Source of the DNA: Comamonadaceae bacterium | GTDB lineage: Bacteria; Pseudomonadota; Gammaproteobacteria; Burkholderiales; Burkholderiaceae_C | Length of the DNA: 33,330 nt | NCBI GenBank assembly: GCA_013823485.1 | Contig: PNMF01000019.1 | Coordinates: 1 to 33,330, forward strand | Reading direction: 5' to 3' | Shown: one piece after another, positions 15,834-30,300 of the stretch | How the letters are laid out: every line of letters begins with the position of its first letter | How positions within the stretch are numbered: position 1 is the first letter of the stretch | Notes under the pieces: model-generated | What the model was told of the DNA's origin: nothing | Databases searched by the model: none | The model's input: the letters and a program-made list of their open reading frames with translations, nothing else | Program-made: the position numbers and the translations under genes

Positions 15834-16453
15834 AGGCTTCGCGCGGCTGGCTGCTGCTGTGCGCGGTGCACGGCGTGGCCAGCATGCTGCTGTGGTGGGC
15901 GCGCGAGCCGGCGCTGGCGGCACTCACCTGGCAGGCCGACGCCTGGGACCGCCACCCCTGGACGCTCTGGACCAGCGCCTGGGTGCGCGCTTCCACGCCG
16001 GAGCTGATCACGCATCAGGTCGGCCTGGGCATGCTCGCCCTGCTGGCCTGGGTGCTGCGGCCGCCGCGTGCCGCCACCGCCGCGTGGCTGCTGTGCTGGC
16101 CGCTGATTCCGCTCTGCCTGCCCTTGTGGCCCCATGTGGACCATGCCGGCGGACTGTCCGGCGTGCTGCACGCCGGGGCGCTGGTGATCGCGGTGATGCT
16201 GCTGGCCCGGCGCATCGCCGTGCCGAAAGCGCGCCGCTGGGGCGCCTTGCTGCTGCTGGCGATGCTGGCCAAGCTGGCGCTGGAGCGGCCCTGGATGTAC
16301 CCGGTGGTCTGGGACCCGGGCAACGAAACCTCGGTGGTGCAGGCGGCCCACCTGGTGGGCGCCGCCTGGGGCCTGCTGTTGGGGCTGCTGGCCAGCGTCA
16401 GCTGGCGGCGGCGGGCGCCGCGGGCGCGGCCAGCGACTTCCGGAACCGGTTGA
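15830..16453 (+). CDS. rrtA: Rhombosortase-type rhomboid intramembrane serine protease
   Basis: This 207-residue polytopic membrane protein has about five or six hydrophobic segments. It shows the rhomboid catalytic pair in the rhombosortase arrangement: Ser110 in HAGGLSGVLHAG, and His174 in AAHLVGAAWG within the last membrane helix. Rhombosortases cleave the C-terminal GlyGly-CTERM sorting tail of secreted proteins. The GLSGVLH form, rather than GASG, favours this subfamily. Translation is coupled to glnE by a four-base ATGA overlap. The last 56 bp overlap, tail to tail, the 3' end of the ferritin-like gene on the other strand. No protein with a GlyGly-CTERM tail is encoded in the window. 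A generic rhomboid is the alternative. Confidence 0.8.
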   Translation: MKASRGWLLLCAVHGVASMLLWWAREPALAALTWQADAWDRHPWTLWTSAWVRASTPELITHQVGLGMLALLAWVLRPPRAATAAWLLCWPLIPLCLPLWPHVDHAGGLSGVLHAGALVIAVMLLARRIAVPKARRWGALLLLAMLAKLALERPWMYPVVWDPGNETSVVQAAHLVGAAWGLLLGLLASVSWRRRAPRARPATSGTG

Positions 16454-17246
16454 GCTCCTGCACCGTCTTGAAGCTGCTGTCCATCAGCAGGCTCATGTTG
16501 TGCAGGATGCGCTCGACCACCTTGTTCTCCCAGACCGCATCGAAATCGATCTGCTTGTCCAGCCAGTGCTCCAGCCACTCGGGGTCGGGCAGGCGGCTCT
16601 GGATGGTGTCGTTGGGGAACAGCGCCTTGTTGACGTGCAGGTTGGTCGGATGCAGCGCCTGCGCGGTGCGGCGGGCGCTGGCCATGAGCACGCCCACCTT
16701 GGCGAACGACGAACGCGCCTCGTCGCCGAACTTGGCAATGGCCCGCTTCATGTAGCGCAGGTAGGCGCCGCCGTGGCGGGCTTCGTCCTGGCTGAGGGTC
16801 TGGTAGATGTGCTTGATGACCGGCTCGGTGTGCCATTCGCTGGCGCGGCGGTACCAGTGGTTCAGCCGGATCTCGCCGCAGAAGTGCAGCATGAGCGTCT
16901 CGAGTGCCGGGGCCGGATCGAACTCGAAGCGGATCTGGTGCAGCTCTTCCTCGGTCGGCACCAGCTCGGGCCGGAAGCGGCGCAGGTACTCCATCAGCAC
17001 CAGCGAGTGCTTCTGTTCCTCGAAGAACCAGATCGACATGAAGGCCGAGAAGTCGGAGTCGTCGCGGTTGTCGCGCAGGAACATCTCGGTGGCCGGCAGC
17101 GCCGCCCACTCGGTGATGGCGTTCATCTTGATGGTCTGTGCCTGTTCGTCGGTGAGCAGGCTGGCGTCAAACCGGTCCCAGGGGATGTCCTTGTCCATGT
17201 CCCAGCGGACCGATTCGAGTTGCTTGAAGAGTTCGGGGTACAGCAT
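16398..17246 (-). CDS. Ferritin-like diiron protein (acyl-ACP-desaturase-like)
   Basis: This encodes a 282-residue soluble, mostly helical protein with the ligand pattern of a ferritin-like dimetal carboxylate site. There is a first Glu in ATEMFLRDN, an ExxH in FFEEQKHSLVL, a Glu in CGEIRLNHWY, and a second D/ExxH in QDEARHGGAY. The spacing resembles fatty-acid desaturase type 2 (acyl-ACP desaturase) enzymes, so an O2-dependent desaturase, oxygenase or oxidase role on a lipid is plausible but unproven. I chose the ATG at 17246 because AAGGA lies five bases before it; the ATG at 17252 leaves no spacing. It is last in the regulator-DUF2256-photolyase run, 53 bp after the photolyase stop, and its 3' end overlaps rrtA. 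Confidence 0.82.
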   Translation of the reverse strand: MLYPELFKQLESVRWDMDKDIPWDRFDASLLTDEQAQTIKMNAITEWAALPATEMFLRDNRDDSDFSAFMSIWFFEEQKHSLVLMEYLRRFRPELVPTEEELHQIRFEFDPAPALETLMLHFCGEIRLNHWYRRASEWHTEPVIKHIYQTLSQDEARHGGAYLRYMKRAIAKFGDEARSSFAKVGVLMASARRTAQALHPTNLHVNKALFPNDTIQSRLPDPEWLEHWLDKQIDFDAVWENKVVERILHNMSLLMDSSFKTVQELNRFRKSLAAPAAPAAAS

Positions 17247-17270
17247 GTTCATCCTTCGAAAACCGCCACA

Positions 17271-17276
17271 ATTTTA
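17271..17276 (-). promoter_or_regulatory. Possible internal -10 box (TAAAAT) before the ferritin-like gene
   Basis: Read on the minus strand the bases are TAAAAT, 24 bases upstream of the chosen start, in the 53-bp gap after the photolyase gene. A fitting -35 is not clear. If active it would let the diiron gene be expressed apart from the photolyase operon. Confidence 0.3.
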
Positions 17277-17299
17277 GGCGTTTGCCTGTGTCAGCGGTC

Positions 17300-18853
17300 T
17301 TAAAGCGTGTCGAGGTGGTCCAGCAGGTACGCGGCATGCGTCCGGATGGATGCGCGGGTGGGCTCGTCGAGCTTCTGCAGGTTTTTCACCATGAGGGCGG
17401 TGCGCGGGCTGGCGGCCAGTTCGGTTTCGTGCCGGTCCAGAAAGTTCCAGTACAGGGTGGTGACCGGGCAGGCACCCTCGCCGCTGCGCTGCGCCGGCGC
17501 ATAGGCGCAGCCCTTGCAGTAGTTGCTCATGCGGTCGATGTACTGGCCGCTGGCCACATAGGGCTTGCTGGTGAAGCGCCCGCCATTGGCAAACAACGCC
17601 ATGCCCGCCACATTGGGCAGCTCGACCCATTCGATGGCGTCCACATAGACCGCCAGGTACCAGTCGGCCACCTGCTGCGGCGAGAGCTCGGCCAGCAGCG
17701 CGAACTGCCCGGTGACCATGAGCCGCTGGATGTGGTGCGCGTAGCCGTGCTTGAGCGTCTGGCCGACGGTGTCGCGCATGCAGGCCATGCGGGTGTTGCC
17801 GGTCCAGTACCAGGCCGGCAGCTTGCGCTGGTGGCCGTAGTGGTTGGCCTCGCGCAGGCCGGGCATGTCGAGCCAGTAGACGCCGCGGATGAATTCGCGC
17901 CAGCCCAGGATCTGGCGGATGAAGCCCTCCACCGCGGCCAGCGGCAGGCCGCGTTCGCGCCAGGCCGTCTCGGCGGCGGCCACCACCTCGCGCGGGTCGA
18001 TCAGGTGCAGGTTGAGCGCCACCGACAGCAGCGAATGCCAGCCGAAGGGGGTGTCGGTCCACATGGCGTCCTGGTAGGCGCCGAAGGCGATCAGGCGGTC
18101 GTCGATGAAGCGCTGCAGTGCCTCGCGGGCCTGTGCCGGCGTGACCGGCCAGCCGAACTCGGCCAGCGAGCCCGGGTGGTCGGGGAACCGCCGCTGCACC
18201 AGCGCCAGGACCTCGCGGGTGATGGCGTCGGGCTCGAAGCGGGCCGGTTCGGGTATCCAGCCCGGGCCGGCCTTGGGGAAGCTCTTGCGGTTGTCGGCAT
18301 CGAAGTTCCACTGGCCGCCCGCCGGCTCCTTGCCCTCCATCAGCACCCCGTGTTCGCGGCGCATCTCGCGGTAGAAGAACTCCATGCGCCATTCCTTGCG
18401 GCCGTGGGCCCAACGCGCAAAGCGCTCGCGGCTGCACAGGAAATGGGTGTCCGGGTGCCAGTGCAGGGGCACGGCGGCCTGCGTGGCGGCGGCCTCGATG
18501 TCCTGCTGCAGCCGCCATTCCCCGGCCTCACACACCTGCAGGCCGGCCGGCCGCAGGGCTTTCAGTTCGGCCAGCAGCCGGTCGGCCAGGGCGGGGCGGT
18601 CGGCATGGGCCGGGTCGTCCAGCTCGATGTAGGTCAGCGGCCAGCCCCGGGCCCGCAGGTCGGCCCGGAAGTGGCGCATGGCCGACAGGAACAGGGCGAT
18701 GCGCGCCGGATGGCTCCAGACCGCGGTGGCCTCGCCGGGGGCTTCGATCACCAGCACCCGGTCCTGCGCCGGGTCAAAGCCGGCCAGTGCGGGGTTGCCC
18801 GACCAGAGCTGGTCGCCCAGCACCAGCACCAGGTGGCGGATCGGGCCGCTCAT
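17300..18853 (-). CDS. Iron-sulfur bacterial cryptochrome/(6-4) photolyase (FeS-BCP, CryPro)
   Basis: This 517-residue flavoprotein belongs to the prokaryotic (6-4) photolyase group (PhrB-like), which repairs UV (6-4) photoproducts with light or acts as a blue-light receptor. The N-terminal Rossmann domain begins [10 protein letters not shown]. The C-terminal FAD domain includes [11 protein letters not shown] and [16 protein letters not shown]. Four cysteines can bind the 4Fe-4S cluster: Cys358, Cys446, Cys449 and Cys462. Their spacing exactly matches the cluster cysteines I recall for Agrobacterium PhrB (350, 438, 441, 454), shifted by eight. The ATG overlaps the DUF2256 stop by four bases, and the gene sits in an operon with a B12-type photosensor, so light induction is likely. 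Confidence 0.95.
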
Positions 18854-19020
18854 GGCGCGGGGCGGCGGGCCGCGTCGGCCCGGCAGCGGTCACTGCAGTA
18901 CTTGACCTGTTCCCAGGTGCGCTCCCATTTTTTCCGCCAGGTCATGGGGCGGCCGCAGGCCTGACAGGGCTTGCTCGGCAGGCTGGCCTTGTTGCCCCGG
19001 AAACCGCCGTCGCGGCTCAT
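18850..19020 (-). CDS. DUF2256 small zinc-ribbon-like protein
   Basis: This encodes a 56-residue basic protein with two CxxC-type pairs, [10 protein letters not shown] and [10 protein letters not shown], and the conserved central [18 protein letters not shown] typical of DUF2256. The cysteine pairs suggest a small zinc-binding fold. Family members often lie beside cryptochrome or photolyase genes, as here. The ATG at 19020 overlaps the regulator stop and the TGA overlaps the photolyase start, each by four bases, so the three genes are translationally coupled. Molecular function is unknown; a helper role for the photolyase (for example nucleic-acid binding or folding) is only a guess. Confidence 0.88.
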
Positions 19021-20024
19021 GCGGGCTGTCCGGCTTCGGCGCGCCAGCGCGAGACCGCCAGCGGAATGTCCTGCAGGCGGCCCAGCGGCCAGAAGGCACG
19101 GCCGCGCGCGGAGGCGCCGGTGCGGCCGCGCACCGGTTTGTAGAGCGCCGGGCAGGCGCCGCCAGCCCAGATTTCCACCTCCGGCGGCAACAGTTCGCGC
19201 AACTGGTCCAGCGCGGCGCGCACGTCGCGCGGGTTCTGGGCGGCGGTGAAACTGAGCGCCACCACATCGGCCTGGGCCGCCGCTACGGCGTTGACCAGAT
19301 CGGGGATGGGGGTCTGCACCCCCAGCGGCACGGTGTTGCAGCCTTCCAGCACCATGAAGCATTCGGCCATCAGCAGCCCCAGACCGTGCTGCTCGCCCGG
19401 CAGGGTGGTCAGCAGGACCCGGGGCGGCCGGGCCGGCGGCTGCAGGGCCACCATGGCGTGGCGCAGCGTGCCCTGGACCACCTCGGTGTAGAGGTGTTCC
19501 TCGTGCACCGCCAGCCGGCCTTCCAGCCACGACTGCCCGACCAGCACGTTCATGGGGGAGATACCCTCGATCAGGGTGCGCGCCAGCCCCCGTTCATTGA
19601 TCATGCGCACCAGCGCGTGCCGCAGCCCGCCCGCGTCCTGGCGCCGCAGCAGGTCGAGCCAGGGGTGGACATCCTCGGTCTCCGAAGGGGATTCCCCGCC
19701 CGGCTGCATCTGGCGCGCCGGTTGCGGCGTAGTGGCAGAAGACAGCGCGAGCAGGCGTTCCAGCGGCAGCGGAACAATCTGGCCAGGCCGGTGTCCGGCG
19801 TCGATCAGCCGGCGGATGTGCCGCAGCCGGGTGAGGTCGTCGTCGGTATAGCGGCGCTCGCCCTGCGCGTCGCGCCGGGGTTGCGGAAACCCGTAGCGGC
19901 GCTCCCACACCCGCAAGGTGTCCTTGCCCAGGCTGGTGTCGCGCTCGACATCGGCAATGGTGTGGGGGGCGGCGGGTGATGGGCTTGTATTTGTCATGGA
20001 CAACCGATCCAATCGGTCGCGCAT
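19017..20024 (-). CDS. MerR-family B12-dependent photoreceptor regulator (CarH/LitR type)
   Basis: CarH/LitR proteins hold adenosylcobalamin, bind operators as tetramers in the dark and let go when light breaks the cofactor's Co-C bond. This 335-residue protein has an N-terminal MerR winged helix ([26 protein letters not shown] in two parts, about residues 22-47). A four-helix cobalamin cap carries the signature W-x9-E-H, with Trp166, Glu176 and His177. A Rossmann B12 domain carries the ExHxxG lower-ligand motif Glu211-Gln-His213 through Gly216. All hallmarks of the light-sensing class are therefore present. The start is 20024, or possibly the ATG at 19997. It is first in the DUF2256-photolyase run and divergent from the peroxidase and lipid genes, its likely targets. 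Confidence 0.9.
19991..20016. promoter_or_regulatory. Two abutting palindromes between the photoreceptor and peroxidase genes
   Basis: TTGTCATGGACAA (19991-20003) and CCGATCCAATCGG (20004-20016) are perfect 5-bp-arm dyads with 3-bp centres that touch end to end. The second extends to ACCGAT/ATCGGT. They overlap the 5' end of the regulator gene (its ATG at 19997 lies inside the first) and stand 24 bases before the peroxidase start. They are good candidates for autoregulatory MerR-type operators, based on symmetry and position only. Confidence 0.45.
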
Positions 20025-20039
20025 TATGGAGGTCTCAAG

Positions 20040-20693
20040 ATGAAATCACGGAATGACGGTCTGCAAACCCGAGCGCAGCACCCCTGCATGCCCGCCCTCG
20101 GCCTGTTTGCGCTGCTGACGCTGGGCGCGCTGGCATGGACCCCTGCGGCCAGCGCCCAGACCCGCCCCGCAGCGCCGGCCACGGCAGCCCCGGCCCCGGC
20201 CGACAATTGCCCCGCCCTGCTGCAGCACCGCTTCGACCGCCTGCAGGACGAAAAACCGCAGTCCCTCTGCCAGTACGCCGGCCGGGTGACCCTGGTGGTC
20301 AACACCGCCAGCTTCTGCGGCTTCACCCAGCAGTACGGCGCACTGGAGGCGCTCTACAGCCGCTACAAGGACCGCGGCCTGGTGGTGCTGGGCTTTCCCA
20401 CCAACGACTTCGGCCGCCAGGAGCCCGGCAGCAACGCCTCGATCGCGGCCTTCTGCGAAAGCACCTTCGGCGTCAAATTTCCGATGTTCGCCAAGACCAC
20501 GGTGGTCGGCAGCGGCACCAACCCGCTGTACCAGCAGCTCGCCCAGCGCACCGGCGAGCGGCCACAGTGGAACTTCCACAAGTACCTGATCGACCGCTCC
20601 GGCCGCGTGGTGCGGAGCTATGCCAGCTCGGTTGACCCCAAAGACCCTTCGCTCGTGAAGGATATCGAGCGAATGTTGTCGGAAAAATCGTGA
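20040..20693 (+). CDS. Glutathione peroxidase family protein, exported
   Basis: This thiol peroxidase reduces hydroperoxides, including lipid hydroperoxides, using glutathione or more probably thioredoxin-like donors. The 217-residue product has an unusually long N-terminus with a signal peptide (hydrophobic core about 18-33, cleavage near ASAQ at 40) and an Ala/Pro-rich linker, so it is predicted to be periplasmic. The catalytic set is intact: Cys93 in NTASFCGFT (TGC, not selenocysteine), Gln127 in FGRQEPG, and Trp177-Asn178 in QWNFHKYL. Cys139 in AAFCESTFG is a plausible resolving cysteine. GGAGG at 20028-20032 is well placed. It is divergent from the photoreceptor gene and precedes the lipid operon, consistent with photo-oxidative defence. 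Confidence 0.93.
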   Translation: MKSRNDGLQTRAQHPCMPALGLFALLTLGALAWTPAASAQTRPAAPATAAPAPADNCPALLQHRFDRLQDEKPQSLCQYAGRVTLVVNTASFCGFTQQYGALEALYSRYKDRGLVVLGFPTNDFGRQEPGSNASIAAFCESTFGVKFPMFAKTTVVGSGTNPLYQQLAQRTGERPQWNFHKYLIDRSGRVVRSYASSVDPKDPSLVKDIERMLSEKS

Positions 20694-20728
20694 CTGGTCA
20701 GTCACAATGAGACTGTTCAGTTTAAATA
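20691..20728 (+). promoter_or_regulatory. Tandem 12-bp dyads plus AT-rich -10-like box upstream of the lipid operon
   Basis: GACTGGTCAGTC (20692-20703, extending to TGACTG-GT-CAGTCA) and GACTGTTCAGTT (20711-20722) are two copies of one palindromic element, spaced 19 bp centre to centre. The second runs into TTTAAATA (20721-20728), the most AT-rich box in the region and a plausible -10. The first copy overlaps the peroxidase stop codon. Two near-identical dyads just before a long operon beside a MerR-type regulator make a strong operator candidate, though binding by that regulator is inferred. Confidence 0.5.
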
Positions 20729-21038
20729 CACCCACATCCGGCTGCAGATTGCCCCGCAGTTTCGGGACAGATTCAGGAGTCTTTTGCATGGTCTTCAGCA
20801 TCTGGCGGAACTTCCGTTCCCGCACGGCACTCCATGCCGGTGTGGGTGGACAGCCGGTTGGCGACCACTCCCCGTTTTCCGAACTGCGAAGTCTGACGGC
20901 CCTCCCCGGCCGGGCTGAAATCCCGAGGCGTTTCTCCTCCTCCTCCCTCCCTCCCTTGTTCGTTTCGGGGCGCTTCGCAGTTCTTTCTTATTCCGGGCAC
21001 CGCAGCGCGGTCGCCCTCGGGGCCAGCCGGTGACTGCC
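20694..21038 (+). other. 345-bp leader between the peroxidase and amine-oxidase-like genes
   Basis: This is by far the longest gap inside the cluster, where other genes overlap. It holds the tandem dyads and -10-like box, a possible small ORF at 20788, and a 10-bp palindrome CCCGGCCGGG (20905-20914). It also has a 27-nt pure pyrimidine tract (20931-20957) made of TCC/TCCC units. Its second half is less GC-biased than the genes. An untranslated regulatory leader is likely. Confidence 0.5.
20788..21033 (+). CDS. Possible small ORF ahead of the lipid operon
   Basis: This is an 81-codon open frame beginning MVFSIWRNFRSRTALHAG. AGGAG stands eight bases before its ATG and its stop comes five bases before the amine-oxidase-like start, positions that would suit a translated leader coupled to the operon. 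Against it, I recognise no family. Codon use in the second half (TCC repeats, TAT, CTT, GTT) is unlike the neighbours and follows the pyrimidine tract. It may be a short leader peptide, a relic, or chance. Confidence 0.25.
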   Translation: MVFSIWRNFRSRTALHAGVGGQPVGDHSPFSELRSLTALPGRAEIPRRFSSSSLPPLFVSGRFAVLSYSGHRSAVALGASR

Positions 21039-22442
21039 ATGTACCGCGACGCCCCTTCTTCCCCCGCCCGCCCCATGCCACGTGTTGCCATCGTGGGCTC
21101 CGGCATCTCGGGCCTGGCGGTGGCCCACACGCTGCAGGGCCTGGCCGACCTGACCCTGTTCGAGGCCAACGACTACTTCGGCGGCCACACCCACACGGTG
21201 GACATGACGCTGCCCGACGCCCAGGGCCGCCCGACCACCTTCGGCGTGGACACCGGCTTCCTGGTGCTCAACGAACGCACCTACCCCAACCTGCTGGCGC
21301 TCTTCTCGCAGCTGGGGGTTGAGATTGCGCCTTCCGACATGTCGTTCTCGGTCCAGGCGCCGGGCGCGGCGCCCGGGGGTGGTGCGCTCGAATGGAGCGG
21401 CTCCAGCCTGTCGACCGTGTTCTCGCAGCGCCGCAACCTGCTGAACCCGCGCTTCTGGCGCATGCTGGCCGACATCCTGCGTTTCAACCGCATCACCACC
21501 CGCCTGGCCGAGCGCGGCGACGACCTGGGCGAGAACAGCCCGCTGCTGCAGCCGCTGGGCGATTTCCTGCGCGAGCAAGGCTTCTCGGACGAATTCCGCG
21601 ACTGGTACTTCCTGCCCATGATGGGCTGCATCTGGAGCTGCCCGACCGACCAGATGCTGGCCTTCCCGGTCGCCACCATGGTCCGCTTCTGCCACAACCA
21701 CGGCCTCATCCAGGTGAGCAACCGGCCGCAGTGGTACACGGTGCGCGGCGGTGCCCGGCACTACGTCGACAAGATCGTGGCCGAGGTGCCGGATGCCCGC
21801 CTGTCCACCCCGGTGCGCCAGGTGCTGCGCGACAGCCAGGGCGTGCGCATCGTCACCGACCGGGGCGTCGACCGCTTCGACGCGGTGGTGATGGCCTGCC
21901 ACACCGACCAGACGCTGCGCCTGCTGGGCGGCGAGGCCTCGGCCAACGAACGCGAGGTGCTCGGCGCCATCCGCTACCAGGCCAACCGCGCCGTGCTGCA
22001 CACCGACGCCCGGGTGCTGCCCGCCAGCCGCCGCGCCTGGGCGGCCTGGAACTACGAACGTGCCCCCAGCGCGAGCCGCGAATCGGCCCAGGTCTGCCTG
22101 CACTACCTGCTCAACCAGCTGCAGCCGCTGCCGGTGGAGCAACCGGTGGTGGTGTCGCTCAACCCGCAACGCCCGATCGAGGACCGGTTCGTGGTCGGCG
22201 CCTGGGACTACGACCACCCGGTGTTCGACCTGGCCGCCATCCGCGCGCAGGCCCGCGTGCCGGCGCTGCAGGGACACCTGGCCACCTTCTACGCCGGTGC
22301 CTGGTGCGGTTACGGCTTCCACGAAGATGGGCTGAAGTCCGGTCTGCGGGCCGCACGCTCGCTCATCGAGTACCTCGGCCTGGTGCCGGTGACCGACGAC
22401 CAGACCGCGCGCCGCGCTGCCCTGCCCGGGGTGTTTGCATGA
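21039..22442 (+). CDS. FAD/NAD(P)-binding amine-oxidase-like oxidoreductase
   Basis: This 467-residue flavoprotein of the amine oxidase/CrtI-like fold has an N-terminal FAD-binding motif VAIVGSGISGLAVAH (about residues 17-30), followed by FEANDYFGGHTHT. The C-terminal flavin motif is AGAWCGYGFHEDGLKSGLRAA (in two parts). Relatives sit beside CFA-synthase-like genes and act, or are predicted to act, on fatty-acyl or isoprenoid chains; a desaturase role in methylated or furan fatty-acid synthesis is my inference. The ATG at 21039 has GGTGA five bases upstream; a later ATG at 21075 has no ribosome site. The TGA overlaps the DUF1365 ATG by four bases. Confidence 0.88.
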   Translation: MYRDAPSSPARPMPRVAIVGSGISGLAVAHTLQGLADLTLFEANDYFGGHTHTVDMTLPDAQGRPTTFGVDTGFLVLNERTYPNLLALFSQLGVEIAPSDMSFSVQAPGAAPGGGALEWSGSSLSTVFSQRRNLLNPRFWRMLADILRFNRITTRLAERGDDLGENSPLLQPLGDFLREQGFSDEFRDWYFLPMMGCIWSCPTDQMLAFPVATMVRFCHNHGLIQVSNRPQWYTVRGGARHYVDKIVAEVPDARLSTPVRQVLRDSQGVRIVTDRGVDRFDAVVMACHTDQTLRLLGGEASANEREVLGAIRYQANRAVLHTDARVLPASRRAWAAWNYERAPSASRESAQVCLHYLLNQLQPLPVEQPVVVSLNPQRPIEDRFVVGAWDYDHPVFDLAAIRAQARVPALQGHLATFYAGAWCGYGFHEDGLKSGLRAARSLIEYLGLVPVTDDQTARRAALPGVFA

Positions 22443-23248: not shown

Positions 23249-24474
23249 ACAGCACCACCGCCACCCGACAGCCCGCCGGCTTCGCGCTGCCGCGCAATGC
23301 ACCCGCCGCCGCCCGCACCACCCTGCAACTGCTGCAGCGCCTGGTGCACGGCAGCCTCACGCTGACCCTGCCCGACGGCTCGGTGCAACGCTTCGGCAGC
23401 ACCGAAGGCCCGCACGCCAGCATGAAGCTGCACAACTGGAACGTGTGCAGCGCCGCGCTCAAATCGGGCGACATCGGCTTTGCCGAGAGCTTCATTGCCG
23501 GCGACTGGACCACGCCCAACCTGACCACCCTGCTGGAGCTGATGATCGCCAACCGCCGCGAGGTGGAAGACGTCATCTACGGCTCCTGGTTCGGCCGCCT
23601 GGCCTACCGCATCAAGCACCTGCTCAACCGCAACAGCAAGACCAACAGCCGCAAGAACATCCATGCCCACTACGACCTGGGCAACCCGTTCTACCGGCTC
23701 TGGCTGGACGAGACGATGAACTATTCATCGGCCTGGTTCGAGACCCCCGGCCAGGACATGGCGGCCGCCCAGCACGCCAAGGTGCGGCGGGCCCTGCGCA
23801 TGGCTGGCGTGCAGCCGGGTCACCGGGTGCTGGAGATCGGCTGCGGCTGGGGCGCGCTGGCCGAGAAGGCCACGCTGGAGTTCGACGCCAGCATCACCGG
23901 CGTGACCCTCTCCACCGAGCAGCTCGACTTCGCCCGCGAACGCATGGCCAGCATCGGCCGGGCCGATCGCGCCGACCTGCGCCTGCAGGACTACCGCGAC
24001 ATCCGCGACGAACCCTTCGACGCCGTCTGCTCGATCGAGATGATCGAAGCCGTGGGCCGCGAGTACTGGCCGACCTACTTCCAGAGCGTGGCCCGCCTGC
24101 TCAAGCCGGGTGGCCGCGCCTGCATCCAGAGCATCGTGATCGAGGACGCCCTGTTCGACCGCTACATCAAGGGCACCGACTTCATCCAGCAATACATCTT
24201 CCCCGGCGGCTGCCTGCCGTGCCCGACCGAGTTCCGCGCGCAGGCCCGCGCCGCCGGACTGGAGGTGGTGGACGAATTCCCCTTCGGCCTGGACTATGCC
24301 GAGACGCTGGCCCAGTGGCGCGATCGCTTCCTGCACGAGCACGACCGGGTGCTGGCACTCGGCTTCGACCAGCGCTTCATGCGCATCTGGGAGTTCTACC
24401 TCGCCTACTGCGAGGCCGGCTTCCGGGGCGGCAACATCGACGTCGTGCAGTACACCCTGCGCAAGCCCGCCTGA
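23245..24474 (+). CDS. SAM-dependent cyclopropane-fatty-acyl-phospholipid synthase family methyltransferase
   Basis: This family transfers a one-carbon unit from S-adenosylmethionine to the double bond of an unsaturated phospholipid acyl chain, giving cyclopropane or methyl-branched products. The 409-residue protein has an N-terminal lipid-binding domain (about 1-130). The catalytic domain contains HAHYDLGNPFYRLWLDETMNYS (in two parts, about 140-161), the SAM-binding loop VLEIGCGWGAL (195-205), CSIEMIEAVG and the conserved YIFPGGCLP. Its place with DUF1365 and an amine-oxidase-like gene is typical of the branch that includes the UfaM methylase of furan-fatty-acid synthesis, rather than the housekeeping Cfa. 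The ATG overlaps the DUF1365 stop. Confidence 0.93.
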   Translation: MNSTTATRQPAGFALPRNAPAAARTTLQLLQRLVHGSLTLTLPDGSVQRFGSTEGPHASMKLHNWNVCSAALKSGDIGFAESFIAGDWTTPNLTTLLELMIANRREVEDVIYGSWFGRLAYRIKHLLNRNSKTNSRKNIHAHYDLGNPFYRLWLDETMNYSSAWFETPGQDMAAAQHAKVRRALRMAGVQPGHRVLEIGCGWGALAEKATLEFDASITGVTLSTEQLDFARERMASIGRADRADLRLQDYRDIRDEPFDAVCSIEMIEAVGREYWPTYFQSVARLLKPGGRACIQSIVIEDALFDRYIKGTDFIQQYIFPGGCLPCPTEFRAQARAAGLEVVDEFPFGLDYAETLAQWRDRFLHEHDRVLALGFDQRFMRIWEFYLAYCEAGFRGGNIDVVQYTLRKPA

Positions 24475-24494
24475 CCCCACCACGGAGGACCGGC

Positions 24495-25070
24495 ATGAAA
24501 CCACGCACCCCCTCGCTGCTGGCCTCACTGGTCTGTGCGGCCGCCCTGGTCGGCGCACTGCCGGCCCGGGCCAACCCGCCGGAACCCACCCTGACGGCCG
24601 CGCTGCAGGACAAGACCAGCGTCGGCCAGGCGCGCCTGAAGGTCTGGGGCTTCGATGTCTACGACGCCACCCTGTTCGCCCGCAGCGGCTTCGACCCGGC
24701 GCGCTACGGCGAACAGCGCTTTGCGCTCGAACTGGCCTACCTGCGCAACTTTGAAGGGGCCGACATCGCCGAGCGGTCCATCGAGGAAATGCGCCGGGTC
24801 GCGCCGTTCGACGACGCCCGGGCCGCCACCTGGCTCAAGGCCATGACCGACCTGTTCCCCGACGTGAAGAAGGGCGACCGCATCACCGGCGTGCACGTGC
24901 CCGGCAGCGGCGCCCGGTTCTACCTGAACGGCCGTCTGCTGGGCGAAGTGGCGGACGACGCCTTCTCGCGCCAGTTCTTCGGCATCTGGCTCTCGCCCCG
25001 CACCTCGCAGCCCCGCATGCGCGAGACGCTGCTGCAATCGGTCGCGGGCGTGTCGCCGCGCAACCCATGA
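24495..25070 (+). CDS. Chalcone-isomerase-like exported protein
   Basis: This 191-residue protein has a clear Sec signal peptide (MKPRTPSLLASLVCAAALVG, cleaved near ARA at about residue 26). A chalcone-isomerase-like fold follows: GQARLKVWGFDVYDATLF (about 43-60), ELAYLRNFEGADIAERSIEEM in two parts, and the C-terminal FYLNGRLLGEV and FGIWL. Eukaryotic members of this fold bind fatty acids or isomerise flavonoids; bacterial exported ones have no settled role. In this operon a periplasmic fatty-acid or lipid-binding role is reasonable but inferred. GGAGG lies six bases before the ATG at 24495, and the stop overlaps the transporter ATG by four bases. Confidence 0.85.
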   Translation: MKPRTPSLLASLVCAAALVGALPARANPPEPTLTAALQDKTSVGQARLKVWGFDVYDATLFARSGFDPARYGEQRFALELAYLRNFEGADIAERSIEEMRRVAPFDDARAATWLKAMTDLFPDVKKGDRITGVHVPGSGARFYLNGRLLGEVADDAFSRQFFGIWLSPRTSQPRMRETLLQSVAGVSPRNP

Positions 25071-26383
25071 ACCCGACACAGGACCCGGCAGCACGTTTCA
25101 TCGGTCCAGGCGCCTGGCGCCACGGTCTGAGCTACGGTCTGCTGGGCCTGCCGCTGGCCTTCGTGGCCCTGCCGCTGTATGTGGTGCTGCCCAACCACTA
25201 CGCACGCGAATTCGGCGCGCCGCTGGCCGCCCTGGGCGCGGTGCTGCTGGCCGCGCGGCTGGTGGACGCGGTGCTCGACCCCATCATCGGGCGCTGGTGC
25301 GACCGGCTGGCCGCGCGCTCGCCGGGCGCGGTGCTCGGCGTCAGCGGCTTCGCGGCCGTGCTGCTGGCACTGGGCCTGTGGGCGCTGTTTTTCCCCCCGG
25401 CCGCCGTGCGCGACGGCAGCACCCTGCTGCTGGGCTGGGCCGGGCTGGTGATGGCGCTGAGCTACACCGTGTTCAGCGTCATGAGCGTGGCGCACCAGGC
25501 CTGGGGCGCCCGACTGGGCGGCAACGAAGCGCAGCGCAGCCGCGTGGTGGCCTGGCGCGAGGCGCTCGGTCTGTGCGGCGTGCTGACCGCTGCGGTGCTG
25601 CCCGGCACGCTCGGGCTGGGCGCCATGGTGGGCAGCTTCGCAGTGCTGCTGGCCCTGGGCTGGTGGGCCTGGACCCGCAGCCTGCGCCCGGCGGCGTCGA
25701 TCGACCTTGCGCACGACGCTGCGCCGCAAGGCCCGTCGCCGCTGCGCCAGCCGGCCTTCGTGCGGCTGCTGGCGGTGTTCATCATCAACGGCACGGCCAG
25801 CGCGGTGCCCGCCACCCTGGTGCTGTTCTTCGTGCAGGACCGGCTGCAGGCACCGACCTCGATCGAACCGGCCTTCCTGGGCACCTATTTCCTGTGCGCG
25901 GCGCTCTCGATGCCGCTGTGGGTGCGCGCCGTGGCCCGCTTCGGGCTGGCCCGCAGCTGGCTGCTGGGCATGGGCCTGTCGGTGGCGGTGTTCGTGTGGG
26001 CGGCCACGCTGGGCACCGGCGACATAGTGCCCTTCATCGTGGTCTGCGCGCTCTCCGGCATGGCCCTGGGGGCCGACCTCACCGTGCCCGGCGCCCTGCT
26101 GGCCGGCCTGATCGGCGACCTGGGCGAGCGCGGACGGCGCGAAGGCGCCTACTTCGGCTGGTGGAACTTCGCCGCCAAGCTCAACCTGGCGCTGGCCGCC
26201 GGCCTGGCGCTGCCGGTGCTGGCCTGGCTGGGCTACGAGCCGGGCTCGCGTGACCCGCATGCCCTCATGACCCTGACCGCCGCCTACTGCCTGCTGCCCT
26301 GCGTGCTCAAGCTGATCGCCGGTGGCGCGCTGCACTGGCTGGTGATCCGCCGGCCGGCGCAGAGCGCCATCCAACCTGTCTGA
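25067..26383 (+). CDS. MFS transporter, GPH (MelB-like) family
   Basis: This is a 438-residue inner-membrane protein with about 12 hydrophobic segments. The N-terminal half has features of the glycoside-pentoside-hexuronide:cation symporter family: FGAPLAALGAVLLAARLVDAVLDPIIGRWCDR in pieces (about residues 46-77), with the family's conserved Asp residues in helix 2. A later loop has GERGRREGAYFGWWNFAAKL (about 347-366). Similar transporters recur in the homologous singlet-oxygen-response gene set of Rhodobacter, where annotation as a sugar symporter is probably only nominal. The substrate is unknown; a lipid-linked or membrane-related cargo would fit the operon. The ATG overlaps the previous stop; the next gene starts 26 bp downstream. 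Confidence 0.88.
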   Translation: MNPTQDPAARFIGPGAWRHGLSYGLLGLPLAFVALPLYVVLPNHYAREFGAPLAALGAVLLAARLVDAVLDPIIGRWCDRLAARSPGAVLGVSGFAAVLLALGLWALFFPPAAVRDGSTLLLGWAGLVMALSYTVFSVMSVAHQAWGARLGGNEAQRSRVVAWREALGLCGVLTAAVLPGTLGLGAMVGSFAVLLALGWWAWTRSLRPAASIDLAHDAAPQGPSPLRQPAFVRLLAVFIINGTASAVPATLVLFFVQDRLQAPTSIEPAFLGTYFLCAALSMPLWVRAVARFGLARSWLLGMGLSVAVFVWAATLGTGDIVPFIVVCALSGMALGADLTVPGALLAGLIGDLGERGRREGAYFGWWNFAAKLNLALAAGLALPVLAWLGYEPGSRDPHALMTLTAAYCLLPCVLKLIAGGALHWLVIRRPAQSAIQPV

Positions 26384-26409
26384 AACCCTTGCTGAAACGG
26401 AACCCCACC

Positions 26410-26949
26410 ATGCAACGACGTCTCCTGCTGGCGGCCGGTCTGACCGGTGCCGCCACCCTGGCCGGCTGCGCCGGCCCCCAGATCGCGCAGTACGCCAGCG
26501 AAAAGCCGGTGCTGGACCTGCGCCAGTACTTCAACGGCACGCTGGACGCCTACGGCATCTTCACCGACCGCTCCGGCGCGGTGGTCAAGCGCTTCACCGT
26601 GGTCATGCGCTGCAGCTGGAACGGCGAGGAAGGCGTGCTCGACGAAGACTTCGTCTACTCCGACGGCACCACCCAGAAACGCATCTGGCGCCTCAAGCAC
26701 CTGGGCGATGGCCGCTATGTCGGCCAGGCCGACGACGTGGTCGGCGAAGCACTGGGCGAGACCCGGGGCAACGCCTTCCGCTGGGGCTACACGCTGGCGC
26801 TGCCGGTGGACGGCAAGGTGTGGGAGGTGCAGTTCGACGACTGGATGTACCTCATGGACGACCGCGTCATGCTCAACAAGGCCGAGATGAGCAAGTTCGG
26901 CATCCGGCTGGGTGAAGTCACGCTGACCTTCGTGAAGCGGGCGCCATGA
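26410..26949 (+). CDS. DUF3833 family lipoprotein
   Basis: This 179-residue protein starts with a lipoprotein signal (MQRRLLLAAGLTGAATLAGC) whose lipobox LAGC places the lipidated cysteine at residue 20. The rest fits DUF3833: LDLRQYFNGTLDAYGIFTD, DEDFVYSDGTTQKRIWRL and a lipocalin-like run of beta strands ending in VMLNKAEMSKFGIRLGEVTL in pieces. Asp-Trp in QFDDWMYLMDDR is conserved. The function is unknown; the beta-rich fold and envelope location suggest lipid binding or delivery. I chose the ATG at 26410 (GGAAC ten bases before) over an ATG at 26389 that would spoil the signal sequence. The TGA overlaps the dehydrogenase start. Confidence 0.88.
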   Translation: MQRRLLLAAGLTGAATLAGCAGPQIAQYASEKPVLDLRQYFNGTLDAYGIFTDRSGAVVKRFTVVMRCSWNGEEGVLDEDFVYSDGTTQKRIWRLKHLGDGRYVGQADDVVGEALGETRGNAFRWGYTLALPVDGKVWEVQFDDWMYLMDDRVMLNKAEMSKFGIRLGEVTLTFVKRAP

Positions 26950-27719
26950 ACCCGCGCCTGACCGATTGGACCGGCCGGCGCGTCTGGCTGGTGGGCGCCT
27001 CCAGCGGCATCGGCGAGGCATGCGCCCATGCGCTGCACGCGCGCGGCGCCCAGGTGCTGGTGTCGGCGCGCGGCGCGGCCGCCCTGGAAGCGTTTGCGGC
27101 CCGCCACGGCGGCAGCCACCCGGCGCAGGCCTGGCCACTGGATGTGACCGACCCGGGCGCGGTGACCGCCACGGCCCACGCCATCCTGGCCGACGGGCCG
27201 CTGGACCTGGTCGTGTACTGCGCCGGCCACTACCGCGAAATGCGGGCCACCGCCATCGACATGGCCGACCTCAACCGCCACTGGGCCATCAACTACCAGG
27301 GCGCCCTGCATGTGCTGGACGCCGTCGTGCCGGCCATGCTGGCGCGCCGGGCCGGGCACATCAGCCTGATCAGCAGCGTGGCCGGCTTCCGGGGCCTGCC
27401 GAAGAGTCTGGCCTATGGCCCGACCAAGGCGGCGCTGACCAACCTGGCCGAAAACCTCTACCTCGACCTCGGACCCCACGGCATCGGCGTGAGCGTGGTG
27501 CACCCGGGCTTCGTGCAGACGCCGCTGACCGCGCAGAACCAGTTCGAGATGCCGGCCCTGATCACGCCCGAGGAGGCCGCCGAAGCCATGCTGGCCGACT
27601 GGGCGCGTGGCGCGTTCGAGATCCATTACCCCAAGCGCTTCACCCATTTCATGAAGCTGCTGCGGCTGCTGCCCTACCGGCTGTTCTTTCCGGTGGTGCG
27701 GCGCTTCACCGGGCTCTGA
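26946..27719 (+). CDS. Short-chain dehydrogenase/reductase (SDR)
   Basis: This 257-residue NAD(P)-dependent oxidoreductase of the classical SDR type has the cofactor loop GASSGIG (residues 17-23), the YCAG element at 91-94, catalytic Ser near 143-144 in LISSVAG, and Tyr157 and Lys161 in YGPTK. The C-terminal part is basic and hydrophobic (FMKLLRLLPYRLFFPVVRR), which could attach the protein to the membrane and suits a lipid or fatty-acyl substrate. The ATG overlaps the DUF3833 stop by four bases, and the next gene starts three bases after its stop. A dehydrogenase in the same position occurs in the related Rhodobacter gene set. The precise substrate is unknown. Confidence 0.92.
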   Translation: MNPRLTDWTGRRVWLVGASSGIGEACAHALHARGAQVLVSARGAAALEAFAARHGGSHPAQAWPLDVTDPGAVTATAHAILADGPLDLVVYCAGHYREMRATAIDMADLNRHWAINYQGALHVLDAVVPAMLARRAGHISLISSVAGFRGLPKSLAYGPTKAALTNLAENLYLDLGPHGIGVSVVHPGFVQTPLTAQNQFEMPALITPEEAAEAMLADWARGAFEIHYPKRFTHFMKLLRLLPYRLFFPVVRRFTGL

Positions 27720-27722
27720 ACC

Positions 27723-28172
27723 ATGGCCATCGACACCGCCGCCGCGCGCGCCGCGACCGAGCGCATCTGCCATTACTTCGAGCACCTGTCGCCCGCCTCG
27801 CTGGGCGAGATCGACCGGCTCTACACCCCGCTGGCCCGGTTCAAGGACCCGTTCAACGAGGTGCACGGCACAGCGGCCATCCGCGGCATCTTCGAGCACA
27901 TGTACGCCTCGCTGCACGAGCCGCGGTTCGTGGTGACGCAACGCATCGTCGACGGGGCGCAGGTGTTCCTGGCCTGGGAGTTCCACTTCCGCTTCCAGCG
28001 CTTCGACCCGCAGCAGCCACGCGTGATCCGGGGCGGATCGCACCTGCAGCTCGACGACGACGGCCGCATCGCCGACCACCGCGACTACTGGGACGCCGCC
28101 GAGGAGCTGTACGAGAAGCTGCCGCTGGTGGGCGGCCTGATGCGCTGGCTGAAGAAAAAAGCCGGGCAGTGA
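27723..28172 (+). CDS. NTF2/SnoaL-like fold protein
   Basis: This 149-residue soluble protein has the cone-shaped NTF2/SnoaL pattern. It has N-terminal helices with LYTPLARFKDPFNEVHG (about residues 38-54), a middle strand run AQVFLAWEFHFRFQRF, and DGRIADHRDYWDAAEELYEKLP near the end (in pieces). Such folds serve as isomerases, hydratases or binding proteins for hydrophobic ligands. As the last gene of the lipid cluster, three bases after the dehydrogenase, it may act on or carry the same product. Its stop codon directly abuts that of the convergent GST-like gene, leaving no room for a terminator between them. Confidence 0.87.
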   Translation: MAIDTAAARAATERICHYFEHLSPASLGEIDRLYTPLARFKDPFNEVHGTAAIRGIFEHMYASLHEPRFVVTQRIVDGAQVFLAWEFHFRFQRFDPQQPRVIRGGSHLQLDDDGRIADHRDYWDAAEELYEKLPLVGGLMRWLKKKAGQ

Positions 28173-28787
28173 TCAGACCGGGCGGGTGTCGATGAAGCTC
28201 TGGCGCTGGTTGAGCTTCTCGGCCAGACGCGACAGGTTGGGGTACGGGTCGCGCCAGTTGATCACCGGGAAGCGGAAGTCCAGGTAACCCAGGGCACAGC
28301 CCACCGCCAGATCGGACAGCGAGAGGTGGTTGCCGGAACAGAACGGCTTCTCGCCCAGCCCCTGGCTCATGGACTTCAGGCTGGCCTCGATCTTGCCGAT
28401 CTGCCGGTCGATCCAGGCCTTGCTGCGCTGCTGGTCGGTCCGGCCGGCCCAGGTGGCCTCCAGACGGGCCAGCACGGCGGCGTCCAGCAGACCATCGGCC
28501 AGCGCCTCCCAGGTCTTGACCTCGGCGCGCTCGCGGCCGCCGGCCGGAATCAGCTTGCCCACCGGGGAGAGGGTGTCGAGGTATTCGACGATCACCCGCG
28601 AGTCGAACACGGCCTCGCCGCCTTCCATGACCAGACAGGGCACCTTGCCCAGGGGGTTGGAGGCGGTGATGGTGGTGTCTGCCGACCAGACGTCTTCCTG
28701 CACGAACTGGTAGTCGAGCTTCTTCTCGGCCATGACGACGCGAACCTTGCGCACGTAAGGGCTGGTGACGGCTCCGATGAGTTTCAT
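28173..28787 (-). CDS. Glutathione S-transferase family protein
   Basis: This 204-residue cytoplasmic protein has the GST two-domain layout. The thioredoxin-like N-terminal domain includes TSPYVRKVRVVMAEKKLDY (about residues 8-26, with a candidate active Ser9), NPLGKVPCLVMEGG with the cis-proline, and the glutathione-contacting DSRVIVEYLD. The all-helical C-terminal domain has HLSLSDLAVGCALGYLDF. It transfers glutathione to electrophiles or acts as a peroxidase; the substrate is unknown. It is divergent from purB and convergent, with zero spacing, with the end of the lipid operon, so its membership of the photo-oxidative group is possible but not shown. Confidence 0.92.
   Translation of the reverse strand: MKLIGAVTSPYVRKVRVVMAEKKLDYQFVQEDVWSADTTITASNPLGKVPCLVMEGGEAVFDSRVIVEYLDTLSPVGKLIPAGGRERAEVKTWEALADGLLDAAVLARLEATWAGRTDQQRSKAWIDRQIGKIEASLKSMSQGLGEKPFCSGNHLSLSDLAVGCALGYLDFRFPVINWRDPYPNLSRLAEKLNQRQSFIDTRPV

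Positions 28788-28851: not shown

Positions 28852-30300
<1,449 letters not shown>

What the first reader, a model, noticed from the sequence alone, without database searches (positions are those of the whole stretch)
16398..28172. A B12-photoreceptor-centred module joining photorepair, peroxide defence and membrane-lipid modification
Seen: a CarH/LitR-type regulator with W-x9-EH and ExHxxG motifs is coupled by 4-bp overlaps to DUF2256 and an FeS-type photolyase, followed by a diiron protein. Divergently lie an exported glutathione peroxidase and eight closely spaced genes (amine-oxidase-like, DUF1365, CFA-like methyltransferase, chalcone-isomerase-like, GPH transporter, DUF3833 lipoprotein, SDR, NTF2-like). 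Known, from memory: comparable genes form part of the RpoE-ChrR singlet-oxygen regulon in Rhodobacter, and LitR proteins control photolyase and CFA-like genes in some proteobacteria. Inference: here light sensing by adenosylcobalamin has taken over control of the whole lipid branch, in a presumably non-phototrophic betaproteobacterium. The coordinated set, with several domains of unknown function, is the best candidate for an under-described system.
Basis: partly seen in the sequence, partly recalled or inferred. Interest (0 to 1): 0.85.

Follow-up and report, generated by a model that had tools for sequence, protein, structure and literature searches.

The report
Light-sensor, furan-lipid and small-RNA stress island
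A probably phototrophic Hydrogenophaga keeps a vitamin-B12 light sensor, DNA repair, peroxide defence and a known furan-lipid pathway side by side, and between them lies an undescribed, strongly conserved RNA element that may help control the lipid genes.

Summary
The genes are real and at the stated coordinates. The "lipid branch" is not unknown: its first three genes match UfaD, UfaO (DUF1365) and UfaM, the methylated furan fatty acid pathway. The host is Hydrogenophaga-like and encodes PufL, PufM, PufC, BchC and BchY, so "non-phototrophic" is very probably wrong.

The LitR keeps the CarH B12 motifs. A candidate operator, TTGTCnnnGACAA, sits at the litR/gpx divergent promoter. In named ufaD loci it occurs within 2 kb of ufaD in 15 of 17 with LitR and 0 of 57 without. 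It also lies 180-200 bp before iscR in 13 of 24 genus genomes. So LitR control is well supported for litR/gpx, not for "the whole lipid branch": most family clusters have no adjacent LitR, and other elements stand before ufaD.

The main new item is an RNA element at 20884-20990, between gpx and ufaD. It has strong covariation, a conserved CU-rich (anti-Shine-Dalgarno) stretch, a U-rich end and a GGAACTT (sigma-E-type) box. It occurs once in 144 of 200 family genomes, matches no Rfam family, and lies just before ufaD or stays when ufaD is gone.

No transcript, binding or light response was tested.

The parts
16398..17252 (-). ferritin-like diiron protein (two ExxH motifs), distant relative of acyl-ACP desaturases
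   Evidence: PF03405 27.1 bits over cut-off 22.7; 71-94% identical in 9 relatives; fold nearest acyl-ACP desaturases, top TM (query) 0.47-0.58, model pLDDT 78
17300..18853 (-). FeS-type bacterial (6-4) photolyase / CryB family
   Evidence: PF04244 E 1e-79; PDB relatives E to 5e-155
18850..19020 (-). DUF2256 small protein, ATGA overlaps on both sides
   Evidence: PF10013 E 2e-21; coordinates
19017..20024 (-). LitR/CarH-family MerR regulator with B12-binding domains (alternative start at 19997)
   Evidence: Pfam; CarH structures E 2e-26 with W-x9-EH and ExHxxG conserved
19990..20004 (+). candidate LitR operator TTTGTCATGGACAAC at the litR/gpx divergent promoter (inside the litR frame if the longer start is used)
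20040..20693 (+). glutathione peroxidase with signal-peptide-like N-terminus (by eye)
   Evidence: PF00255 E 1e-32; recurrent position
20690..20705 (.). palindrome GTGACTGGTCAGTCAC, candidate operator of the ufa operon (regulator unknown)
   Evidence: element of this type in 22 of 62 RNA-element loci with ufaD and 0 of 17 without (strict palindromes, mostly Hydrogenophaga)
20807..20835 (+). GGAACTT-N17-TCCAT, sigma-E (RpoE)-type promoter-like box of the RNA element
   Evidence: 1 match in window, 0 expected; GGAACTT in all 17 genus sequences caught; 54 of 79 relatives carry GGAAC-N-TC within 140 nt versus 0.9 in mononucleotide shuffles
20884..20990 (+). structured RNA element: 9-bp closing stem, variable hairpin, predicted 10-bp stem around a 30-nt CU-rich anti-Shine-Dalgarno stretch, U-rich 3' end (possible sRNA and ufaD leader)
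   Evidence: covariation; distribution; no Rfam match
21030..22442 (+). UfaD-like flavoprotein desaturase
   Evidence: PF01593 E 1e-18; description of UfaD in PMC7380195
22439..23248 (+). UfaO-like protein (DUF1365)
   Evidence: PF07103 E 8e-80; UfaO = DUF1365 (PMC7380195)
23245..24474 (+). UfaM-like SAM-dependent fatty acyl methylase
   Evidence: PF02353 E 3e-86
24495..25070 (+). chalcone-isomerase-like protein
   Evidence: PF16036 E 3e-14
25067..26383 (+). GPH/MFS_2 transporter
   Evidence: PF13347 E 7e-49
26389..26949 (+). DUF3833 protein
   Evidence: PF12915 E 3e-70
26946..27719 (+). short-chain dehydrogenase
   Evidence: PF00106 E 9e-40
27723..28172 (+). SnoaL/NTF2-like protein
   Evidence: PF12680 E 2e-16

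Best explanation
This is a photo-oxidative-stress island of a probably anoxygenic-phototrophic Hydrogenophaga. In the dark, LitR with adenosylcobalamin most likely sits on TTTGTC-N3-GACAAA at the litR/gpx divergent promoter and represses litR-DUF2256-photolyase on one side and gpx on the other. Light breaks the cofactor and opens the promoter. Relatives carry the same site before iscR, so LitR probably also raises Fe-S cluster supply. The eight genes downstream make methylated furan fatty acids (UfaM, UfaD, UfaO) plus accessory proteins that protect the membrane from singlet oxygen. Their expression is not LitR's alone. A conserved RNA element between gpx and ufaD has its own sigma-E-type promoter-like box and a terminator-like end. 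It is predicted to act twice: as a small RNA whose CU-rich stretch pairs with Shine-Dalgarno sequences, and as the leader that RNA polymerase must read through to reach ufaD. Shown here: gene families, conservation, co-occurrence of operator and LitR, RNA covariation, positions, phototrophy genes. Inferred: cofactor, repression, light response, sigma-E control, termination, targets, lipid product.
For: LitR: B12 domains and CarH motifs. Operator within 2 kb upstream of ufaD in 15 of 17 LitR+ and 0 of 57 LitR- named loci; of four control palindromes one has a single match (1 of 17 LitR+) and none matches a LitR- locus. In 8 LitR+ loci without gpx the nearest operator lies 45-136 bp before the ufaD match. 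An operator lies 180-200 bp upstream of iscR in 13 genus genomes. Enzymes. RNA: 7 of 27 pairs with double changes on the 18-sequence MAFFT alignment, covariation score reached by 0 of 500 shuffles; 20 of 27 pairs on 76 distinct sequences (alignment fitted to the model); 144 of 200 family genomes, one copy each; just upstream of ufaD in 38 of 80 named loci, with one more match cut at a contig start; kept where ufaD is not beside it. Phototrophy. No ChrR over cut-off in 40 relatives.
Against: No expression, binding or lipid data. No LitR beside 57 of the 74 named ufaD clusters with enough upstream sequence. Some LitR-less genomes keep the RNA element and the ufa genes, most with gpx, so LitR is dispensable for the set. 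Two LitR+ loci lack the operator (L298, L330). The window's own match to TTTGTCNNNGACAAA has one mismatch, and 16 of 100 shuffles give a match within 2 mismatches; genome-wide the looser TTGTCNWNGACAA has 56 sites in 24 genomes against 24 for the reversed control. The weight rests on conserved position. A sigma-E factor was not searched for, and GGAACTT-N16/17-TCNNA did not match the window's box (fifth -10 letter is T) nor exceed its control in the own genome. The single-sequence fold is not exceptional (z -1.24). RNAalifold's own consensus leaves out the inner stem and pairs parts of the CU-rich stretch instead, so the unpaired loop is a prediction; on the 18-sequence alignment that inner stem has no double change. 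The assembly is 88.8% complete, so absences there are weak.
Confidence: 0.65

Rival explanations
1. One reading: LitR directly controls the entire divergent gene set from the litR/gpx promoter as one light-induced operon, and the gpx-ufaD gap is just spacer.
For: Operator at litR/gpx. In loci without gpx the operator stands directly before ufaD. Tight gene spacing with 4-bp overlaps.
Against: A conserved terminator-like RNA element, a GGAACTT box and a palindrome that goes with ufaD lie between gpx and ufaD. The operon and these elements persist in LitR-less genomes.
Confidence: 0.2
2. The element at 20884-20990 is only a cis-acting leader (attenuator) of ufaD, not a trans-acting small RNA.
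For: In all 38 full-length matches among the 80 named ufaD loci it ends within 90 nt of the ufaD match or, in L330, overlaps its first 9 nt. Start codons lie 11-58 nt after the core in 20 of 29 loci examined.
Against: It persists where no ufaD follows, as in G002, G005, G007, G016 and other genera, with a GGAAC box in 14 of 17 such loci.
Confidence: 0.25
3. The conserved stretch is coding: a small peptide (..IPRRFSSSSLPPLFVSGRFA..) upstream of ufaD.
For: The frame is mostly open and the peptide looks conserved (in which two of 17 rows were printed in a wrong frame). First codon positions are the most conserved (0.907, 0.835, 0.857 for positions 1, 2, 3).
Against: Third positions are no less conserved than second ones. 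Compensatory changes maintain stems. One relative (G005) is shifted inside the CU run.
Confidence: 0.05
4. Envelope-stress sigma-E, not light, is the main regulator of the RNA element and lipid genes, and LitR only sets the level of gpx and photolyase.
For: GGAACTT box in all 17 genus sequences caught, in LitR+ and LitR- genomes alike. RpoE promoters in Shewanella read GAACTT-16/17-TCCAAA (PMC4336711, passages).
Against: The factor was not looked for here. The box lies upstream of a terminator-like end, so it may serve only the small RNA. In some LitR+ loci the LitR operator is right at ufaD.
Confidence: 0.25

Closest known systems
PmlR1/PmlR2 (class II LitR) light-inducible cluster of Pseudomonas mendocina and PplR of P. 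putida (PMC9758184, part 1 of 8 and passages)
   Same: LitR-family regulator near photolyase, SDR, FAD oxidoreductase and ufaM; light-induced set in a proteobacterium
   Different: Class II LitR lacks a working B12 domain and is switched by a LOV protein; operator TGTACA-N12-TGTACA, not found in the window; no such RNA element in the passages read
RpoE-ChrR (ECF11) singlet-oxygen regulon of Rhodobacter and Shewanella (PMC6852236, PMC4336711, passages)
   Same: Same target functions: furan fatty acid genes, photolyase; periplasmic glutathione peroxidase in Shewanella
   Different: No ChrR over cut-off in 40 relatives and no TGATC-N-CGTA box in the window. In the same family ChrR goes with a different, 40-46% identical ufaD cluster in 9 of 10 loci
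Methylated furan fatty acid pathway UfaM-UfaD-UfaO (PMC7380195, passages)
   Same: All three enzyme families, adjacent and in the order D-O-M
   Different: Product not shown here; in R. sphaeroides ufaM (RSP2144) is not part of the RSP1091-1087 operon
Class I LitR/CarH B12 photoreceptors (Thermus, Bacillus, Myxococcus)
   Same: MerR HTH plus both B12 domains and the ligand motifs
   Different: Those are known for carotenoid genes (PMC9758184); here photolyase/gpx and probably isc; 119.6 bits against NCBIfam's CarH cut-off of 400
RF02278 double-hairpin 'toxic small RNAs' (ncS27 etc.) of Burkholderia (PMC5688073, passages)
   Same: CU-rich stretches complementary to ribosome-binding sites
   Different: No Rfam match up to E 5; single copy; three-helix architecture; fixed chromosomal place
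UTR-derived sRNAs CcsR1-4 and UpsM of Rhodobacter (PMC8625941, passages)
   Same: sRNAs tied to a neighbouring mRNA; CcsR1-4 are oxidative-stress induced
   Different: Different class of bacteria; no sequence relation tested beyond Rfam; UpsM's origin by 5'-UTR attenuation is partly recalled

Membership tests
Class I LitR/CarH | MerR HTH + B12-binding_2 + B12-binding domains | tested here: met
   Pfam; CarH structures E 2e-26
Class I LitR/CarH | W-x9-EH and ExHxxG cobalamin motifs | tested here: met
   alignment (motif roles recalled)
Class I LitR/CarH | NCBIfam CarH equivalog cut-off (400 bits) | tested here: not met
   119.6 bits; so family member, not CarH equivalog
Class I LitR/CarH | AdoCbl-dependent dark DNA binding, released by light | not testable with these tools
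   needs protein and DNA
Class II LitR (PplR/PmlR) regulon | operator TGTACA-N12-TGTACA | tested here: not met
   0 matches with up to 2 mismatches
Furan fatty acid (Ufa) pathway | UfaM (CMAS), UfaD (FAD desaturase), UfaO (DUF1365) together | tested here: met
   by family; direct alignment to the R. sphaeroides proteins not made
Furan fatty acid (Ufa) pathway | furan fatty acids in phospholipids | not testable with these tools
   needs lipid analysis
RpoE-ChrR (ECF11) regulon | ChrR in the genome | tested here: not met
   0 of 40 over cut-off incl. own genome (88.8% complete)
RpoE-ChrR (ECF11) regulon | TGATC-N-CGTA promoters | tested here: not met
   none in window; 1 of 80 named loci within 1.5 kb of ufaD
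FeS-type photolyase (PhrB/CryB) | DPRP domain and near full-length match to PhrB/CryB | tested here: met
Rfam RNA families (all 4227) | covariance-model match | tested here: not met
   0 at gathering, 0 up to E 5 for 20600-21100
sigma-E (RpoE)-dependent promoter | -35 GGAACTT and -10 TC-rich box at 16-17 nt | tested here: inconclusive
   window GGAACTT-N17-TCCAT; 54 of 79 relatives; strict pattern uninformative in own genome; factor and start site not determined
Anti-Shine-Dalgarno sRNA | unpaired CCUCC-rich stretch, own promoter, intrinsic terminator, trans targets | tested here: inconclusive
   CU-rich stretch and promoter-like box seen; its being unpaired is predicted and tested as a structure but not given by RNAalifold; one search did not score the element as a terminator; targets not tested

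The most novel reading that the evidence does not exclude
The element at 20884-20990 founds a new RNA family of the Comamonadaceae. It is a single-copy, sigma-E-started, CU-rich anti-Shine-Dalgarno small RNA that is also the leader of the furan-fatty-acid operon. One short RNA would thus couple translational braking to membrane photoprotection, and a B12 light sensor has been spliced in upstream (and onto the isc operon) in some lineages.
Probability: 0.43. Interest if true: 0.78.

Novelty: new variant of a known kind. Interest (0 to 1): 0.6.

Why it matters
It suggests how phototrophic Hydrogenophaga without a recognised ChrR could switch on singlet-oxygen protection. It offers a natural regulatory contrast (LitR versus ChrR, each with its own ufa cluster type) inside one bacterial family. 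It predicts that a B12 photoreceptor controls Fe-S cluster assembly. And it exposes a family-wide RNA that no Rfam model covers, which one northern blot can test.

Tried and rejected
ChrR in the own genome: Cupin_7 hits at G000:C75 are two tandem cupin domains in one frame, below the ChrR cut-off, so not taken as ChrR. Peptide-coding reading of the gap: see rivals. The hairpin of the single-sequence fold (cols 14-18/25-29) gave no covariation above shuffles; RNAalifold's hairpin did, and that helix was chosen on the same alignment it was then counted on. RNAalifold did not give the inner stem; I took it from the single-sequence fold. Sigma-70 promoter and simple terminator scan of 19900-21100: 0 promoters, 1 terminator-like site not above shuffles and not at the element. 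GGAACTT-N16/17-TCNNA in the own genome: 4 forward matches, control 5 and 4, none at the window, so uninformative. Other operator-like sites (L242, L237 before a coxM-like gene; L244 before a lipocalin near a photolyase; L241 before a PAS chemoreceptor; L246-L250 mostly inside genes, judged by eye) are single or double cases and not claimed as regulon; not every site was opened. Diiron function: the fold search only gives acyl-ACP-desaturase-like and other ferritin-like relatives. A first count of the palindrome (21 of 44 with ufaD) left out 18 of the 79 loci, all with ufaD; the full count is 22 of 62, and my odds for the novel case and best explanation were lowered slightly for this and for the RNAalifold result. 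Literature: in the listings (10 of 10 searches) I saw no paper on this RNA element or on a B12-LitR-ufa-isc regulon; the library lacks most subscription papers, and the P. putida PplR and B. multivorans LitR papers cited in PMC9758184 did not show up.

Papers seen: PMC9758184 (part 1 of 8 plus passages), PMC5241685, PMC7380195, PMC4336711, PMC6852236, PMC5688073, PMC8625941, PMC11229431 (passages); others only in search listings.

Full report
What is there. Coordinates, frames and families in the finding check out. LitR overlaps DUF2256 by ATGA at 19017-19020, and DUF2256 overlaps the photolyase at 18850-18853. The eight plus-strand genes run from 21030 to 28172 with 4-bp overlaps at four junctions. 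Beyond them lie a GST-like gene (28173-28787, -) and purB (28855-30300, +); upstream is glnE.

Host. Named relatives put the window in or near Hydrogenophaga, Comamonadaceae (UfaD 92% to Hydrogenophaga sp. IBVHS2). The own assembly (G000, 218 contigs, 88.8% complete) carries adjacent reaction-centre genes at C5:37484-39164; 11 of 24 genus genomes have such genes. NCBIfam names PufL, PufM, PufC, BchC, BchY and PuhE above cut-off, a phytoene-desaturase-family protein above cut-off, and a CrtB-like protein below its cut-off. The host is therefore very probably an anoxygenic phototroph, which makes singlet oxygen a first-hand problem. Passages of PMC11229431 name Hydrogenophaga in lake communities of aerobic anoxygenic phototrophs.

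Lipid genes. R. sphaeroides UfaM, UfaD and UfaO turn vaccenate into 9M5-furan fatty acid, and UfaO is a DUF1365 protein (PMC7380195, passages). UfaD is described there as an NAD/FAD-binding protein related to phytoene dehydrogenases. The window's amine-oxidase-like, DUF1365 and CMAS genes match these by family; no direct alignment to the R. sphaeroides proteins was made. The accessory genes (chalcone-isomerase-like, transporter, DUF3833, SDR, SnoaL) have no assigned step; deletion of RSP1087-1089 did not change the R. sphaeroides fatty acid profile.

LitR and its operator. The regulator aligns with CarH of Thermus over both halves, with W-x9-EH and ExHxxG kept, but is far below the CarH equivalog cut-off (119.6 versus 400 bits). 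The divergent litR/gpx region of relatives shows a palindrome, TTGTCATGGACAA (in G019 the first T is C, G005 has TTGTCCTAGACAA and TTGTCCAGGACAA, G022 lacks it), at 19991-20003 in the window. I tested it on 80 named ufaD loci, of which 17 have an adjacent LitR. After dropping 6 LitR- loci with under 1.5 kb upstream (L261, L266, L276, L283, L292, L301), the palindrome is within 2 kb upstream of ufaD in 15 of 17 LitR+ loci and 0 of 57 LitR- loci. With the same length rule for both groups it is 14 of 16 and 0 of 57, and with at least 4 kb upstream 13 of 14 and 0 of 50. Four control palindromes of the same composition give one match in 17 (one palindrome only) and 0 in 57. In the 8 LitR+ loci without an intervening gpx the nearest site is 45-136 bp from the ufaD match, which supports LitR control of ufa there. 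The Pseudomonas class II site TGTACA-N12-TGTACA is absent from the window.

A wider regulon. In the genus the palindrome stands 180-200 bp before iscR in 13 genomes (G000, G001, G006, G009, G010, G013, G014, G017, G018, G019, G020, G022, G023). Eleven of these have an intact near full-length LitR hit; G006's LitR has one in-frame TGA, and G020 (59% complete) shows only weak hits. In two further genomes with LitR no iscR site was seen: G004 (its single site is at litR) and G005 (four of seven sites were opened). The LitR-less G002, G003, G011 and G016 have no match of TTGTCNWNGACAA anywhere; G007, G008, G012, G015 and G021 have one to three, of which G012's and one of G021's were opened and are not near iscR. 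Over the 24 genomes there are 56 sites against 24 for the reversed control; for the strict 15-mer, 20 against 1 in another set of 24. A link between a light sensor and Fe-S assembly makes sense beside an FeS photolyase, but it is a prediction.

LitR versus ChrR. No ChrR passes the cut-off in 40 relatives; 20 of 200 family genomes have one. I fetched ChrR loci from 10 of these 20. 9 of 10 carry a ufaM-ufaO-ufaD set whose UfaD is only 40-46% identical to the window's, with at least one TGATC-N-CGTA box in each. No chance control was run for that box in these loci, and the sigma gene beside ChrR was not tested; the 33-kb window has none. Among the 80 window-type loci one has such a box within 1.5 kb upstream of ufaD, 688 nt away. 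So in this sample the two regulators go with two cluster types.

The RNA element. The gap between gpx and ufaD contains a block of about 107 nt that is visibly more conserved than its flanks. On 18 genus sequences aligned by MAFFT, the three-helix structure has 94.4% of cells paired and a covariation score that 0 of 500 shuffles reach; 7 of 27 pairs have changes on both sides (26 cells; 5 of 500 shuffles reach 7 pairs, 0 reach 26 cells). The closing stem and the hairpin are in RNAalifold's consensus of the same alignment; the inner stem is not, and RNAalifold instead pairs parts of the CU-rich stretch. The inner stem comes from the window's own fold; it is 97.2% paired on the 18 sequences with no double change, and on 76 distinct sequences aligned to the model it has double changes in 7 of 10 pairs. 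Over all helices that larger set shows double changes in 20 of 27 pairs and 193 cells against 55 in shuffles; that alignment leans towards the model. If the inner stem forms, it leaves about 30 nt of mostly C and U unpaired; all 79 cores hold TCCTCC, though they were found with a model that contains it. Rfam has no match.

Its distribution. blastn finds one copy in 19 of 24 genus genomes; the five misses are 59-84% complete (a further listed hit, G026, is a 19-nt match that I do not count). The model finds it in 11 of 399 order genomes, all in the host's family, where 11 of 12 listed family genomes have it (368 genomes without a match are not listed). It finds it in 144 of 200 family genomes, 104 of 141 genera, one match each (filters there lose some weak matches). 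In 38 of 80 named ufaD loci it is right upstream of ufaD, and one further match is cut at a contig start. Start codons lie 11-58 nt after the core in 20 of 29 such loci examined (29 of the 38); 7 gave no in-frame start near the match, one only starts 80 nt or further off, and L273 only a TTG at 11 nt. Where ufaD is not beside it, the element remains between gpx, or glnE and its neighbour, and the GST-purB pair. It is therefore neither plain spacer nor only a ufaD leader.

Its promoter region. GGAACTT lies upstream in all 17 genus sequences that the script caught (G016 and G022, missed by the script, show it by eye). Across 79 relatives GGAAC-N-TC is found within 140 nt in 54 against 0.9 in mononucleotide shuffles and 0 antisense, at distances that vary. 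RpoE promoters of Shewanella read GAACTT-16/17-TCCAAA (PMC4336711). A second element, of the type GTGACYGATCRGTCAC just after gpx, behaves differently: within 330 nt upstream it is present in 22 of 62 loci with ufaD and 0 of 17 without, while GGAAC[TC][TG] is in 56 of 62 and 14 of 17. The strict palindrome is mainly a Hydrogenophaga feature. So the GGAAC box seems to belong to the RNA and the palindrome to the ufa operon. Both occur in LitR+ and LitR- Hydrogenophaga.

Mechanism. LitR most likely represses litR-DUF2256-photolyase and gpx in the dark. Transcripts entering the gap from gpx, from the palindrome region or from the GGAACTT box meet the element. Part of them would end at its U-run and give a small RNA; the rest would read into ufaD. 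Rhodobacter has a 5'-UTR-derived sRNA, UpsM (named in PMC8625941; its attenuation mechanism is recalled). CU-rich sRNAs that pair with ribosome-binding sites are proposed in Burkholderia (PMC5688073). None of these steps was measured here.

Verdict. The module is ordinary in its enzymes and a new variant in its wiring: a B12-type LitR with a distinct candidate operator, a likely isc link, and an undescribed RNA element shared by most sampled genomes of the family.

Noticed in passing
G000:C79:11474-11488 (L170 3975-3989) and 12 relatives: LitR-type palindrome 180-200 bp upstream of iscR in 13 genus genomes: possible light control of Fe-S cluster assembly.
   Followed up: partly
G000:C5:37484-39164 (L340): Photosynthesis genes (bchC, bchY, pufL, pufM, pufC, puhE, crtI-family and crtB-like) in the window's own genome.
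   Followed up: yes
window 20690-20705: Palindrome GTGACTGGTCAGTCAC just after gpx; this type goes with ufaD (22 of 62 versus 0 of 17); regulator unknown.
   Followed up: partly
L341-L348, L350: A second, 40-46% identical ufaDOM cluster near chrR with TGATC-N-CGTA boxes in 9 of 10 ChrR-bearing family members looked at.
   Followed up: partly
window 16398-17252: Diiron protein is among the most conserved proteins of the island (81-98% in the named loci that hold it); function unknown, fold like acyl-ACP desaturases.
   Followed up: partly
L244 about 4047 (G018) and L179 1099 (G026): LitR-type palindrome before a lipocalin gene near a photolyase, and before an SDR-photolyase pair.
   Followed up: partly
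L242 about 4009 and L237 about 4034 (G006, G019): LitR-type palindrome before a CO-dehydrogenase/xanthine-dehydrogenase-like FAD subunit gene (Pfam run on L242 only; L237 judged by sequence likeness).
   Followed up: no
L241 4017-4029 (G000:C1:72416): LitR-type palindrome about 170 bp before a PAS-domain chemoreceptor gene in the own genome.
   Followed up: no
L334: A record titled Singulisphaera sp. GP187 carries a Comamonadaceae-type glnE-gpx-ufaDOM stretch; probably a misnamed or contaminated bin.
   Followed up: no
window 15830-16453: Membrane-protein-like gene between glnE and the island; I called it rrtA (rhombosortase-like) from memory, not tested by family search.
   Followed up: no
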